A DNA stretch of 42,906 bases from K189A clade bacterium (lineage in GTDB: Bacteria; Pseudomonadota; Gammaproteobacteria; Pseudomonadales; Azotimanducaceae): assembly GCA_009886205.1 (NCBI GenBank), contig QXZU01000162.1, positions 1 to 42,906 of the forward strand, written 5' to 3'. Of this stretch, positions 2,030-33,726 are shown piece after piece. The notes under the pieces were generated by a model. That model was not told the origin of the DNA and searched no databases. It saw only the letters and a list, made by a program, of their open reading frames with translations. Made by a program: the position numbers and the translations under genes. How positions within the stretch are numbered: the stretch's first letter is position 1; the number at the start of each line of letters is the position of its first letter.

Positions 2030-2078
2030 TGTCCTCGCCCTCCTCTTATTATGAGCCTTCACATCATAGGATAAAGAA

Positions 2079-2420
2079 ATGGCAAAGAAAGTAGATTGGT
2101 ATTATTTTCGCAGCGGCTGAACCAGCTGTACCCGAGCATCCAAGTTTTTGGAAGCAAGTAACATAACAATAGCAACCACTGTGCCTGCGAGCCGCAAGCT
2201 ACAGCGGGAAGACGCCCAAGCGCTGCTGGCAAAAGCAAGCAAGATGATTGTGGCAAAGGGTAAAAAAGTAGTTGAGTTCAAAGGCGGAAAAGCAGCCACG
2301 GACGAGGCAGTAGACGCCATGTTGGGCAGCACAGGCAACCTGCGCGCACCCACCAGTGTGGTAGGTAAAACACTCTTGATCGGCTTCAATGAAGACGCCT
2401 TTAATGGTGTCTTTAGCTAA
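2079..2420 (+). CDS. Selenocysteine-containing ArsC/Spx-like thioredoxin-fold protein (in-frame UGA at codon 14, UxxC motif)
   Basis: ATG at 2079 has AGGA (2068-2071) seven bases upstream. Translation begins MAKKVDWYYFRSG, meets TGA at 2118-2120, and continues in frame T-S-C-T-R-A-S-K-F-L to a TAA at 2418-2420, giving 113 residues. The N-terminal beta strand, the redox position followed by xxC (Cys17), the AKGKKVVEF segment and the cis-proline loop GNLRAPT then GKTLLIGFNE are typical of the small ArsC-related family. Relatives of this kind, as I recall them, carry Cys-x-x-Cys where this gene has TGA-x-x-Cys, so residue 14 is most probably selenocysteine. A SECIS-like hairpin follows, and selD is present at 9609-11810. 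Role: inferred thiol/selenol redox reductase; arsenate reduction is not supported because the ArsC HxxxCxxxR-type site is absent. The alternative is a simple nonsense mutation in a CxxC gene. Confidence 0.82.
2118..2155 (+). promoter_or_regulatory. Sec UGA codon and candidate bacterial SECIS element
   Basis: The TGA is at 2118-2120. A hairpin forms at 2136-2155: GC, an A·A mismatch, TCCAA, loop GTTT (2144-2147), TTGGA, GC. The upper stem is five perfect base pairs. There are 23 bases between the UGA and the loop, and the loop begins with G. The published bSECIS model asks for roughly 16-37 bases and a G in the first two loop positions, so this fits. A competing small GCTG/CAGC pairing spans the UGA itself. 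SelB binding is inferred, not shown. Confidence 0.65.
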
Positions 2421-2593: not shown

Positions 2594-3247
2594 ATGAAAG
2601 TTAGCGAAGCCGTTGTAGCGCGAAGATCAATCCGCTCTTTTCTGGACACGCCAGTATCTGATGAACAAATATCTCAACTGTTAGAAAAAGCCGCACGCGC
2701 GCCCTCAGGGGGCAATGTACAACCTTGGCGGGTGTTCGTGATTAATGGCTCGACCATGCCAAAGTTCCACCAGTTCTTGGCTGACACTGATCCTAGAGAA
2801 ACCCCAGCTTACGAAATTTATCCAAAGGAACTGCCCTCCCCCTACCGAGATTCCAGATTCAAAGTGGGCGAAGACATGTACAAACTGCTGAACATCCCGC
2901 GAGACGACAAACCCAGCCGCTTTGCACACTTGGCGAGAAACTTTAAGTTTTTCGATGCACCTGCCGCTTTCTTCTGCTTTATAGACAAAACCATGGGGCC
3001 ACCACAATGGTCAGACCTAGGCATGTTTTTACAAACATTTATGCTGTTGGCGCAGGAAGAAGGACTAGACACATGCGCGCAAGAAGCCTGGGCAAACAGA
3101 TCACAAGCGGTAGCAAGCTTTGTAGGCGCAGAAGACAACTTAATGCTTTTTTGTGGCATGGCCATTGGATATAAAAACCCAGAGGCAGATGTGAACAGTC
3201 TGGTTTCAGACCGAGCGCCGCTGGAGACTTGGGCAAAGTTTGTTTAA
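2594..3247 (+). CDS. Nitroreductase family FMN oxidoreductase
   Basis: 217 residues with the nitroreductase signature: ARRSIRSF at residues 9-16 (FMN phosphate contacts), AARAPSGGNVQPWRV around residues 33-47, and the C-terminal GMAIGYKNPEADVN motif. Members are usually homodimeric cytoplasmic flavoproteins that use NAD(P)H to reduce quinones, nitroaromatics or enones; the natural substrate here is unknown. Start ATG at 2594 follows AGGA at a short distance. It is a single gene, converging on the PhoD gene, with a 45-bp spacer holding an imperfect GGGGC/GCCCC hairpin (3264-3286) without a T run. Confidence 0.9.
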   Translation: MKVSEAVVARRSIRSFLDTPVSDEQISQLLEKAARAPSGGNVQPWRVFVINGSTMPKFHQFLADTDPRETPAYEIYPKELPSPYRDSRFKVGEDMYKLLNIPRDDKPSRFAHLARNFKFFDAPAAFFCFIDKTMGPPQWSDLGMFLQTFMLLAQEEGLDTCAQEAWANRSQAVASFVGAEDNLMLFCGMAIGYKNPEADVNSLVSDRAPLETWAKFV

Positions 3248-9608: not shown

Positions 9609-11810
9609 TTAATAAATTTCCATGATGGAGGCGTCGCAAATCTCACCGATCTGAGTTGCCTCATAACCCAGCACTCTGAGCTGATCTAAACACGCAGCGA
9701 TTTGATGCTGCGGCAGCGTTGCTAACATTCCGCCGGAGGTTTGCGGGTCTACCAGCAGTTGTAGTTTAGGGTCTGCGGCATCAATACCTACGAGCTTATA
9801 GTCTTGCAAAACCAGCGCGTTGGCTTTTTGCAAAGAACTGGCCACACCCTGGCGTACCAACGCTTCAACGCCGGGGAGCATTGGAATATCTGCCAAACGC
9901 AACTTCACGCCGCAACCGGCGCCGCGCAAAATTTCCCCTAGGTGTCCGGCCAGACCAAACCCAGTGACATCGGTGAGCGCCCCTACTTCGTGCGCAACCA
10001 GCACCTCAATACTGGGCCAGTTGCTTTGGTCCATTGACGCCATACACGCGCTGGAAAGCTTGCTCTCTACCTGACCGCGCATGTCTCCAGCCAACACCAC
10101 GCCGGTGCCCAAAGGTTTTGTCAGAATCACACCGTGGCCAATCTGCGCGGCGGCCTTAGTGCTGACCACGCCAGCACTGGCACCCAGTACGGTGAGACCC
10201 AAATTCAGTTCCGCACCTTCCGCTGAATGGCCACCGGCCAGCACAACATCGTGGGCGTTGAGCACATCAACAAGTCCGCTCATAAGCTGAAACAACTCGT
10301 CTTCCATCATTGCCTCAGCCATTAACGGCACGGTAACAAACGCCAGCGCCGCAGAGGGTTTTGCTGCCATGGCGAAGATGTCATTAAGACTATGGTGCGC
10401 GGCTATGCGGCCAAATAGGTACGGATCGCTGACCATGCTGCGAAACCCGTCTACTGTGGCCAGCGTTGTTGGTCCCGTGTTGATGACTTCTGCTGCATCA
10501 TCGCCAATTCCCAACTTTAAATTCACCGACGATTGTGCCGGCAGGCGCGCTAGCACCCGGCGCAGTGGATCAGCTGCCAGCTTCGCACCACAGCCACCGC
10601 AGCGCATTAGGTCTTCGGGCAGGTGCTCGGCTAAGGCGTTTGGCAGAGCGTGCACCGGCGTCTGCATAGACGGCAGATCATTAAATCGGCGCATAAATTT
10701 TTCGTCGATCCACTGCTTCAATTGCCACCAAATTCGTCCTCTTGTAGCCAACGGACCCCAAGAGGCTATCGCCGTGTCATCGCCACAGCCGATCAGATTT
10801 AGGTGATAACGCTGGGGGCGAAATTGACTACTGGATTTAGCAAGACTTAGCCCTTGAATGGCTAGGGCCAAATTGTCGGCCAGAATTGGTCCAGCTCGAA
10901 CAGCATAAACCCCTGCTTTAGGGCGCTCCTGACCAACCAAATGCGCAACATCCCCTGCGGCAAAGATATGCGGGTGAGAGCGGCTACGAAGGCGGTCGTC
11001 TACACGTAAAAATCCTCGTTCATCTTGCTCTAGACCAGTGGCCTTCAACCACTGAGGCGCGCGCACATCGGTGACCCAAAAAACATGATCGGCACGAATA
11101 GTCTGGCTAGAATACTGGAGGGTTAGGTTAACGGTGCAGTCCGCTGTATTGGCCGCTTCCGCAGTGAGACGGTCACATACATAGTTGATTTCTTTCTCCG
11201 CCAAAGCCGCCTCAAGCTGCTTGACCGCTCCTGAACCGTGTCCGGGGAGCAAACTAGGCCCAACTAGGTGTATACCCGTGTTGGCGGGCAGACTCGCCCG
11301 AAAGGACAGGGCTAATTCCGCCCCGCCTGCGCCGGCGCCGATGATGGCAATGCTGCTGGCGTAATGGGTGTCGGCGTGGATACGCTTTTTGATCTCTGCC
11401 CACTTGGGCATGAACTTATTCAGCGGTTTGACACGCATACCTTGGCCCGTTACCGGGGCTTGTTCTGCGCCACAATTCAAAGACAACACATCAAAACGCA
11501 AACTCGGTCGGTCAGCCAACGCAATGGTGTTTTCAACAGGGTCTATGCCCGTAACTCGGGCGCATATTAGGCGTGCCTTGGCAAAAACACACAAAGGCCC
11601 CAGAGCAATATTGATGTCTTTCTCGCTATAGGTCCCAGCGATATAGCCGGGCAACATGCCTGAATAAGGCGAAAGTGCGCTTTCGGAAATAAGTGTGATG
11701 CGAACCCCTGGCACCGGGTTCATGGCGAATTTTTTCAGTACTTGGACATGGCTATGACCGCCGCCAATGAGGACCAAATCGCGAAGTGCAGGGATTTCAG
11801 ATTGCATCAA
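9609..11810 (-). CDS. selD: Selenide, water dikinase SelD fused to an N-terminal NADH-dehydrogenase-like flavoprotein
   Basis: 733 residues in two domains. Residues 1-390 are a pyridine-nucleotide disulfide oxidoreductase of the type II NADH dehydrogenase kind: FAD motif LIGGGHSHVQVL (14-25), NAD motif IIGAGAGGAEL (156-166), and FAAGDVAHL (283-291). Residues 400-733 are SelD: catalytic Cys407 and Lys410 (CGGCGAK), ATP/metal motifs GIGDDAA (435), ATVDGF, GGHSAEG (526), DVTGFGLAGHLGE (614-626) and DPQTSGGML (688-696). SelD makes selenophosphate from selenide and ATP, the donor for selenocysteine, 2-selenouridine and Se-cofactors. The fusion is known in other bacteria, and the flavoprotein may supply reduced selenium. 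The catalytic residue is Cys, not Sec. Its presence supports the selenoprotein at 2079. Confidence 0.95.
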   Translation of the reverse strand: MMQSEIPALRDLVLIGGGHSHVQVLKKFAMNPVPGVRITLISESALSPYSGMLPGYIAGTYSEKDINIALGPLCVFAKARLICARVTGIDPVENTIALADRPSLRFDVLSLNCGAEQAPVTGQGMRVKPLNKFMPKWAEIKKRIHADTHYASSIAIIGAGAGGAELALSFRASLPANTGIHLVGPSLLPGHGSGAVKQLEAALAEKEINYVCDRLTAEAANTADCTVNLTLQYSSQTIRADHVFWVTDVRAPQWLKATGLEQDERGFLRVDDRLRSRSHPHIFAAGDVAHLVGQERPKAGVYAVRAGPILADNLALAIQGLSLAKSSSQFRPQRYHLNLIGCGDDTAIASWGPLATRGRIWWQLKQWIDEKFMRRFNDLPSMQTPVHALPNALAEHLPEDLMRCGGCGAKLAADPLRRVLARLPAQSSVNLKLGIGDDAAEVINTGPTTLATVDGFRSMVSDPYLFGRIAAHHSLNDIFAMAAKPSAALAFVTVPLMAEAMMEDELFQLMSGLVDVLNAHDVVLAGGHSAEGAELNLGLTVLGASAGVVSTKAAAQIGHGVILTKPLGTGVVLAGDMRGQVESKLSSACMASMDQSNWPSIEVLVAHEVGALTDVTGFGLAGHLGEILRGAGCGVKLRLADIPMLPGVEALVRQGVASSLQKANALVLQDYKLVGIDAADPKLQLLVDPQTSGGMLATLPQHQIAACLDQLRVLGYEATQIGEICDASIMEIY

Positions 11811-16891: not shown

Positions 16892-17152
16892 CTAAGGACA
16901 AATGCTGTTTATGGCTTGAGCCAAGGCGGCATCTTTGGCGGTCACCTGGTTACCCGCATCATGGGAGGTCAATTCAATGGTCACGCGGTTGTAAACATTA
17001 GACCAATTGGGATGATGGTCGGCTTTCTCAGCCAGTAATGCGACTTGGGTCATGAAAGCGAAGGCATTGGAAAAATCAGTAAAGACGAAATCTCTACACA
17101 ATTTATTGTTGGTGTGCGCCCAGCCGAGGACGTTGAATTGTTCTGCTGTCAT
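16892..17152 (-). CDS. phhB: Pterin-4a-carbinolamine dehydratase
   Basis: 86 residues. The signature is EKADHHPNW (His46, His47, Pro48) with His64 and TAKD in the spacing expected for the dehydratase active site. It converts 4a-hydroxytetrahydropterin to quinonoid dihydropterin, recycling the cofactor of phenylalanine hydroxylase; some homologues serve molybdopterin or other roles. No phhA lies nearby. It is slightly shorter than usual at the N-terminus (starts [11 protein letters not shown]), but no upstream in-frame start is seen. It is downstream of the gltX/tRNA cluster on the same strand. Confidence 0.88.
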
Positions 17153-17205
17153 CGACTGTTTCCATGCTCACCTTGGTTTTACAGCGCAAGGTGTTGAGAG
17201 AAAAT

Positions 17206-17281
<76 letters not shown>

Positions 17282-33469: not shown

Positions 33470-33508
33470 AAGGTGATTGGGCACCCAACATGCCCAGTCA
33501 CCTTTTTT
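33470..33508 (+). terminator. Rho-independent terminator of lexA
   Basis: AAGGTGATTGGGCA pairs with TGCCCAGTCACCTT (14 bp, one T·G) around loop CCCAACA, followed directly by a run of six T. It lies about 20 bp after the lexA stop. Confidence 0.95.
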
Positions 33509-33565
33509 ATGCCCTCTTTTACACCTCGGCTGCCTTTAGGCGCAGGACTGGATCCTCATTTAGAC

Positions 33566-33607
33566 CTAGAACTTGAACTAGAACTAGAACTAGGCCTAGA
33601 ACTAGAG
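33566..33607 (+). repeat. CTAGAA hexamer array, seven copies
   Basis: There are seven consecutive hexamers, four of them exactly CTAGAA and three variants (CTTGAA, CTAGGC, CTAGAG). It lies between the lexA terminator and topA. Confidence 0.9.
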
Positions 33608-33670
33608 CCAAGTTCAAACCCCGCCCTAATGCTAAGTTGATCTTTCGCTGGGGCATTGAGTCTCTAACTC

Positions 33671-33706
33671 TGTCTCTGTCTCTGTCTCTGTCTCTGTCTC
33701 TGTCTC
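33671..33706 (+). repeat. TGTCTC hexamer array, six perfect copies
   Basis: Six perfect TGTCTC units lie downstream of topA. An AGACTAAC/GTTAGTCT inverted repeat (33712-33733) overlaps the topA stop codon, next to the array; it lacks a strong T run. Confidence 0.95.
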
Positions 33707-33726
33707 TAAAGAGACTAACCCATTAG

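What the first reader, a model, noticed from the sequence alone, without database searches (positions are those of the whole stretch)
2079..2420. Hidden selenoprotein: ArsC/Spx-like redox protein with UxxC
Seen: the frame reads through a single TGA (2118-2120) flanked on both sides by good family sequence. The ATG has a good ribosome site, and the TGA replaces the first cysteine of the CxxC pair. A SECIS-like hairpin (2136-2155) has spacing and loop G that meet the bSECIS rules. A conventional caller would start at TTG 2148, losing the redox site. Known: ArsC-like Sec proteins have been reported from marine metagenomes, as I recall, so the novelty lies in the gene and its genomic setting. Inference: Sec incorporation by SelB.
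Basis: partly seen in the sequence, partly recalled or inferred. Interest (0 to 1): 0.92.

Follow-up and report, generated by a model that had tools for sequence, protein, structure and literature searches.

The report
ArsC/Spx-like UxxC selenoprotein gene
A small redox gene whose in-frame TGA almost certainly encodes selenocysteine; it is real and simple ORF finding cuts off its active site, but it belongs to a selenoprotein family already described from marine bacteria.

Summary
Frame 2079-2420 (+) is open except for one TGA at 2118-2120, codon 14, in a UTSC motif. The hairpin 2136-2155 forms at 7 or 8 of 8 pairs in 25 of 28 distinct sequences, with covariation. The window's genome has selA, selB and tRNA-Sec on another contig and selD in this window. 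Sec insertion by SelB is very likely.

It is not new as a kind. NCBIfam models it (NF041106, 110.2 bits, cut-off 85), and a 2026 review lists that model as a UxxC selenoprotein, citing the 2008 ocean survey.

The predicted fold is thioredoxin-like, nearest Spx by a small margin, but the Spx segment with G52 and most of the ArsC arsenate residues appear absent. Best reading: a selenol/thiol-disulfide oxidoreductase of unknown substrate. New member of a known kind; low interest.

The parts
2079..2420 (+). ArsC/Spx-like selenoprotein gene, 113 aa, Sec at codon 14 in UTSC, stop TAA
   Evidence: (NF041106, 110.2 bits, cut-off 85)
2068..2071 (+). likely ribosome-binding site AGGA, 7 nt before the ATG
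   Evidence: read directly
2118..2120 (+). TGA read as selenocysteine
   Evidence: TGA at this codon in 30 of 30 rows including the window; terminal stops 13 TAG, 9 TGA, 7 TAA, 1 unread
2136..2155 (+). bacterial SECIS-like hairpin, G2144 in the apical loop; 23 nt between TGA and G2144, or 22 nt to the loop if the loop is read as 6 nt
   Evidence: against: the RNAalifold consensus picks another structure, and the published energy limit is not met in the window
9609..11810 (-). NAD(P)/FAD oxidoreductase-SelD fusion, the genome's only SelD match over the curated cut-off (selenophosphate supply)
   Evidence: (255 bits, cut-off 125), (TIGR03169 390.2 bits, cut-off 310; TIGR00476 252.2 bits, cut-off 125)

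Best explanation
Window 2079-2420 encodes a 113-residue selenoprotein of the NF041106 'arsenate reductase-like' family. UGA at codon 14 is decoded as Sec by SelB and tRNA-Sec, guided by the hairpin just downstream (inferred from sequence, not shown by experiment). The protein has a thioredoxin-type fold near Spx (predicted model). It most likely works as a selenol/thiol-disulfide oxidoreductase: the Sec14 selenolate attacks a disulfide or oxidised substrate, and Cys17 resolves the selenenylsulfide (inferred from the UxxC motif). It is unlikely to be an arsenate reductase or an Spx-type RNA polymerase regulator, because most of the residues that define those activities appear absent. Substrate and reductant are unknown.
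For: NF041106 over its cut-off. TGA in 28 of 28 loci and in L012; motif UxxC in 27 of the 28 loci, UTSS in L064. Stem covariation: 17 cells with changes on both sides against a shuffled mean of 5.1, 0 of 500 shuffles reach it. selB, selA and tRNA-Sec on contig C99, selD in the window. selA over cut-off in 24 of 28 relatives' genomes, with 2 more partial and 2 without, against 26 of 194 genomes of the order. Model pLDDT 88.1; best VIA-align neighbour Spx, Z 9.2, 2.6 A over 87 residues. Profile against PDB: putative arsenate reductase 2m46 2.4e-8, Spx 2.2e-7.
Against: No experiment. The hairpin in this one sequence is weak and does not reach the published energy limit. RNAalifold's own consensus does not choose it. 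On two measures are less striking: 17 of 500 shuffles reach the number of pairs with double changes, 87 of 500 the number of further pair types. In three distant sequences (L064-L066) the given stem has only 2, 4 and 5 of 8 pairs. Two of the 28 relatives' genomes show no selA, perhaps because they are incomplete MAGs (not checked). L064 has UTSS, so the resolving Cys is not universal. The fold match is modest: Foldseek's best E is 8e-4 with TM 0.57, and Spx, YffB, ArsC-related and some glutaredoxin chains are nearly tied in Z. The model was made with Cys in place of Sec. The redox activity rests on motif and fold alone.
Confidence: 0.8

Rival explanations
1. The TGA is a true stop or a nonsense mutation or sequencing error; the gene is a pseudogene or starts at TTG 2148.
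For: The 90-aa ORF from TTG 2148 exists.
Against: TGA conserved in 29 relatives from several phyla by record title, with conserved sequence before it (W7 and R11 invariant in 29 rows). Terminal stops vary while the inner codon does not. Sec genes are present.
Confidence: 0.02
2. UGA is read through as another residue (Trp or Cys) or by a genome-wide code change.
For: None found; a frame open under a changed code proves nothing by itself.
Against: Position 14 aligns with the first Cys of the Spx CxxC, the SECIS-like stem covaries, and selA, selB and tRNA-Sec are present. TGA also ends relatives' genes (9 of 29 readable).
Confidence: 0.03
3. It is a selenium-boosted arsenate reductase (E. coli ArsC type).
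For: PF03960 ArsC match, weak and below the cut-off (19.4 bits, cut-off 24). Best PDB profile hit is called a putative arsenate reductase (2m46). At the place of ArsC His8, 11 of the 28 relatives have His (position 10), though the window has Phe.
Against: The residues that PMC5593903 (passages) lists as required, anchored by hand on Cys12=U14, Pro95=P91, Gly106=G102: Arg94 becomes A/S90, Arg107 becomes F/Y103, Asn9 becomes R11, Ser15 becomes C17; Arg60 becomes K60 if ArsC Arg60 matches Spx R60 (my assumption). Of the four neighbouring or selD genes scanned against NCBIfam none showed an ars family among the families listed; other ORFs were not searched for ars genes.
Confidence: 0.08
4. It is an Spx/MgsR-like redox regulator of RNA polymerase with Sec as the sensor.
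For: Closest fold is Spx by a small margin; TIGR01617 Spx/MgsR 31.6 bits, below the cut-off of 75.05; K60 and K62 are invariant where Spx has R60 and K62.
Against: The Spx segment with G52, needed for alpha-CTD binding (PMC2801614, passages), falls in a four-residue gap of this family, and a predicted beta hairpin (55-68) occupies the region just after it.
Confidence: 0.07

Closest known systems
NCBIfam NF041106 ArsC_rel_Se_1, 'ArsC family (seleno)protein'; 'Arsenate reductase-like protein, UxxC' in the 2026 review (PMC13188914)
   Same: Same family by curated cut-off, same UxxC motif.
   Different: Nothing of substance seen; a new member with its genomic context.
GOS 'Arsenate reductase 2' (cd03032, UxxC; 42 Sec and 238 Cys sequences; PMC2398784 table)
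   Same: UxxC, ArsC superfamily, marine; the review assigns NF041106 to this paper. That cd03032 is the Spx branch is recalled.
   Different: Its sequences were not compared here. No Cys form was met among the 29 relatives here, while that survey counted 238 Cys homologs.
Spx (B. subtilis; PDB 1z3e, 3ihq)
   Same: Fold (Z 8.0 to 9.2), CTSC motif position, GYNE/GFNE C-terminal stretch.
   Different: First Cys is Sec; segment with G52 missing.
E. coli-type glutathione/glutaredoxin-dependent ArsC
   Same: PF03960 superfamily, weak; catalytic Cys12 position taken by Sec.
   Different: Arg94 and Arg107 places not Arg; UxxC (by hand anchoring).

Membership tests
NF041106 ArsC family (seleno)protein | score over the curated cut-off of 85 bits | tested here: met
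   110.2 bits over 5-108
Bacterial selenoprotein gene | in-frame TGA aligned with Cys or Sec in relatives | tested here: met
   28 of 28 loci TGA, L012 too; aligned with the first Cys of the Spx CxxC
[quoted passage not shown]
   loop AGUUUU, spacing 22, 6 pairs with one mismatch in the window; such a hairpin in 30 of 30 rows, energy not required and chance rate not computed; rules from PMC13188914
Bacterial selenoprotein gene | SECIS energy at or below -7.5 kcal/mol | tested here: inconclusive
   window -7.3, -5.8 trimmed, -11.8 for 2115-2160, where a second stem contributes; 12 of 30 trimmed hairpins reach it
Bacterial selenoprotein gene | selA, selB, selC, selD in the genome | tested here: met
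Bacterial selenoprotein gene | selenium in the protein | not testable with these tools
   needs labelling or mass spectrometry
Arsenate reductase ArsC (E. coli type) | Arg60, Arg94, Arg107, His8 set | tested here: not met
   K60, A90, F103, F10 in the window, by hand anchoring; residue list; His at place 10 in 11 of 28 relatives
Spx regulator | segment with Gly52 for RNA polymerase alpha binding | tested here: not met
   falls in a four-residue gap (numbering by me); role of G52
Spx/MgsR family TIGR01617 | curated cut-off 75.05 bits | tested here: not met
   31.6 bits

The most novel reading that the evidence does not exclude
A Sec-restricted branch of the ArsC/Spx fold that has lost both arsenate reduction and RNA polymerase binding, has no Cys orthologues, and depends on selenium for a conserved redox job (invariant R11, U14, K60-G61-K62, G86, R89, P91) in Gammaproteobacteria, Deltaproteobacteria, Myxococcales, Gemmatimonadetes, Krumholzibacteriia and Phycisphaerae.
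Probability: 0.25. Interest if true: 0.4.

Novelty: new member of a known kind. Interest (0 to 1): 0.2.

Why it matters
It is a clean case of a selenoprotein gene that simple ORF finding cuts down to a protein without its active site. The 29 relatives examined, all Sec and none Cys, make the biochemistry of this family worth testing, but the family itself is already catalogued.

Tried and rejected
Single-sequence folding: no better than shuffles, so not used as evidence. Inverted-repeat search of 2079-2200: did not list the hairpin. Rfam on 1900-2600: 6 weak matches, none at its gathering score and none a SECIS family. RNAalifold consensus: a different weak structure (-2.07 kcal/mol), told as evidence against. 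Viral contigs with the family alignment: 13 pattern matches, no relative. Phylum-wide search with the alignment at E <= 1e-8: 1 of 398 genomes, the own one. In the order sample 84 of 194 genomes matched NF041106, but only 4 over its cut-off, all four with TGA and all in the window's own family; the weaker matches, none with an inner stop among the rows shown, were taken as ordinary ArsC/Spx relatives and not examined. Neighbour genes of 25 of the 28 loci (L040, L042, L055 and the window left out; up to two ORFs of 100 aa or more a side): no neighbour shared by more than 4 loci; 16 neighbours were read by eye, without a family search. A scan for other TGA-interrupted frames in the window and in 20 kb of C99: 14 and 3 candidates, none but the present one convincing by eye. 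Rows dropped: L011 (taken as L039) and L009 (taken as L054), by equal contig lengths and selA coordinates; L001, L010 and L071 are the window itself.

Papers: passages only of PMC1794560, PMC2398784, PMC9312934, PMC13188914, PMC2801614 and PMC5593903; others in search listings only. For a tested function of this family: selenoprotein with Spx (3 papers, all on plants or selenium compounds by title) and selenocysteine with 'arsenate reductase-like' (3 papers, two of them the reviews PMC13188914 and PMC9312934); no title or abstract start listed names one, and the 2026 review says functions of such families remain largely uncharacterised (passage).

Changed after re-checking: confidence in the best explanation lowered from 0.93 to 0.8, because it includes the mechanism, overlapped with the rivals' odds, and the fold match is only modest.

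Full report
Observation. Window 2079-2420 (+) reads as 113 residues with a single in-frame TGA at 2118-2120, inside UTSC. An AGGA lies 7 nt before the ATG.

Family. NCBIfam NF041106 'ArsC family (seleno)protein' matches at 110.2 bits (cut-off 85). Pfam ArsC is weak (19.4 bits, cut-off 24). A scan of genome contigs gave 28 loci from 123 pattern matches. All 28 carry TGA at the aligned codon, 27 as UxxC and one (L064) as UTSS. L012, from another genome of the window's genus, also has TGA. Over 30 rows including the window the inner codon is TGA 30 times, while the terminal stop is TAG 13, TGA 9, TAA 7 and unread once. Identity of the 28 to the window gene runs from 96 to 42%, and record titles name Pseudomonadales and other Gammaproteobacteria, Deltaproteobacteria, Myxococcales, Eisenbacteria, Thermoanaerobaculia, Gemmatimonadetes, Krumholzibacteriia and Phycisphaerae. 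A chance stop, a mutation or an error does not fit this.

SECIS. The hairpin of this one sequence is not exceptional (19 of 200 shuffles; 979 of 5000 synonymous versions). Across relatives it is. 187 of 224 stem cells pair, 25 of 28 distinct sequences having 7 or 8 of 8 pairs; permuting codons within the same amino-acid column gives 175.6 (sd 2.0) and random synonymous codons 144.6 (sd 6.2), with 0 of 5000 reaching the observed value in each. Neither null keeps the relatedness of the sequences. On alignment A1 (29 rows, 27 distinct) 83.3% of cells pair, 5 of 8 pairs have changes on both sides (17 of 500 shuffles reach that), 17 cells have such changes (0 of 500), the further pair types are less striking (87 of 500), and sliding the partner by one column either way drops pairing to 44-52%. 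Loop letters G27, U28, U29 are invariant in the 29 rows. In L064-L066 the stem codons differ and the given stem is largely broken (2, 4 and 5 of 8 pairs), but their own folds show a stem around the same G, in a register shifted by one as I read it. Against: RNAalifold chooses another weak structure, and the window hairpin does not reach the published energy limit; 12 of 30 trimmed hairpins do.

Machinery. selB (C99:1278-3086, 401.6 bits), selA (C99:3101-4423, 523.1 bits) and tRNA-Sec (C99:46-134, 71.4 bits; ARAGORN: tRNA-SeC, anticodon tca) lie together on contig C99. The only selD match over the cut-off is in this window, fused to an NAD(P)/FAD oxidoreductase, with CGGC where, by eye, the SelD active site lies. 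Such Ndh-SelD fusions with CxxC are known from marine samples (PMC2398784 passages). selA is over cut-off in 24 of 28 relatives' genomes, partial in 2, absent in 2, against 26 of 194 genomes of the order. The 4 order genomes with NF041106 over its cut-off all have selA, but they share one family in which all 7 sampled genomes have it, so they are not independent.

Mechanism. The model (Cys in place of Sec; pLDDT 88.1, pTM 0.76) is a thioredoxin-type fold, closest to Spx by VIA-align (Z 9.2, 2.6 A, 87 residues; other Spx chains 8.0-8.9; YffB 8.8; an ArsC-related protein 8.6; glutaredoxin to 8.0; Vibrio ArsC 7.8). Rows within 1 are tied, so Spx leads only slightly. Foldseek also puts Spx first, with a modest score (E 8e-4, TM 0.57). 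The profile aligns UTSC with the Spx CTSC, K60 and K62 with Spx R60 and K62, and leaves a four-residue gap at the segment with G52 (numbering by me from the chain). G52 and R60 matter for Spx function (PMC2801614 passages). Of the ArsC residues listed in PMC5593903 (passages), the places of Arg94, Arg107, Asn9 and Ser15 hold other residues by hand anchoring; His8's place holds Phe in the window but His in 11 of the 28 relatives. I therefore infer a selenol/thiol-disulfide oxidoreductase with Sec14 as attacking and Cys17 as resolving residue. The substrate is unknown. Gene neighbours do not help: among 25 loci no neighbour is shared by more than 4.

Comparison. The family is in print: an ArsC-like selenoprotein in 2006 (PMC1794560 passages), 'Arsenate reductase 2' UxxC in the 2008 ocean survey (42 Sec, 238 Cys), and NF041106 UxxC in the 2026 review, which cites the 2008 paper for it. 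So this is a new member of a known kind. That I met no Cys form among 29 relatives does not contradict the 238 Cys homologs of that survey: the query patterns favour close relatives, and the survey's sequences were not compared here.

Noticed in passing
window 9609-11810 (-): NAD(P)/FAD oxidoreductase-SelD fusion (733 aa) with CGGC in the SelD part; matches TIGR03169 and selD over cut-off, 'fusion_not_SelD' (TIGR04369) below its cut-off.
   Followed up: yes
L070 (G000 contig C99) 46-4444: Sec cassette: tRNA-Sec, a 295-aa ORF that looks hydrolase-like by eye, selB and selA, all on the minus strand within 4.4 kb.
   Followed up: partly
window 16895-17254 (-): TGA-interrupted frame overlapping tRNA-Ala; by eye a pterin carbinolamine dehydratase-like ORF whose TGA lies just before the likely ordinary start, so probably not a selenoprotein.
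   Followed up: partly
window 2594-3247 (+): Weakly BluB/nitroreductase-like ORF (217 aa, below all cut-offs shown) directly downstream. Four of 25 loci (L039, L041, L044, L046) share a downstream neighbour, 217 aa in L039; the window's own ORF was not in that comparison.
   Followed up: partly
window 33490-33723 (+): Low-complexity frame (RTRT..., LSLSLS...) seen, suggesting simple-sequence repeats.
   Followed up: no
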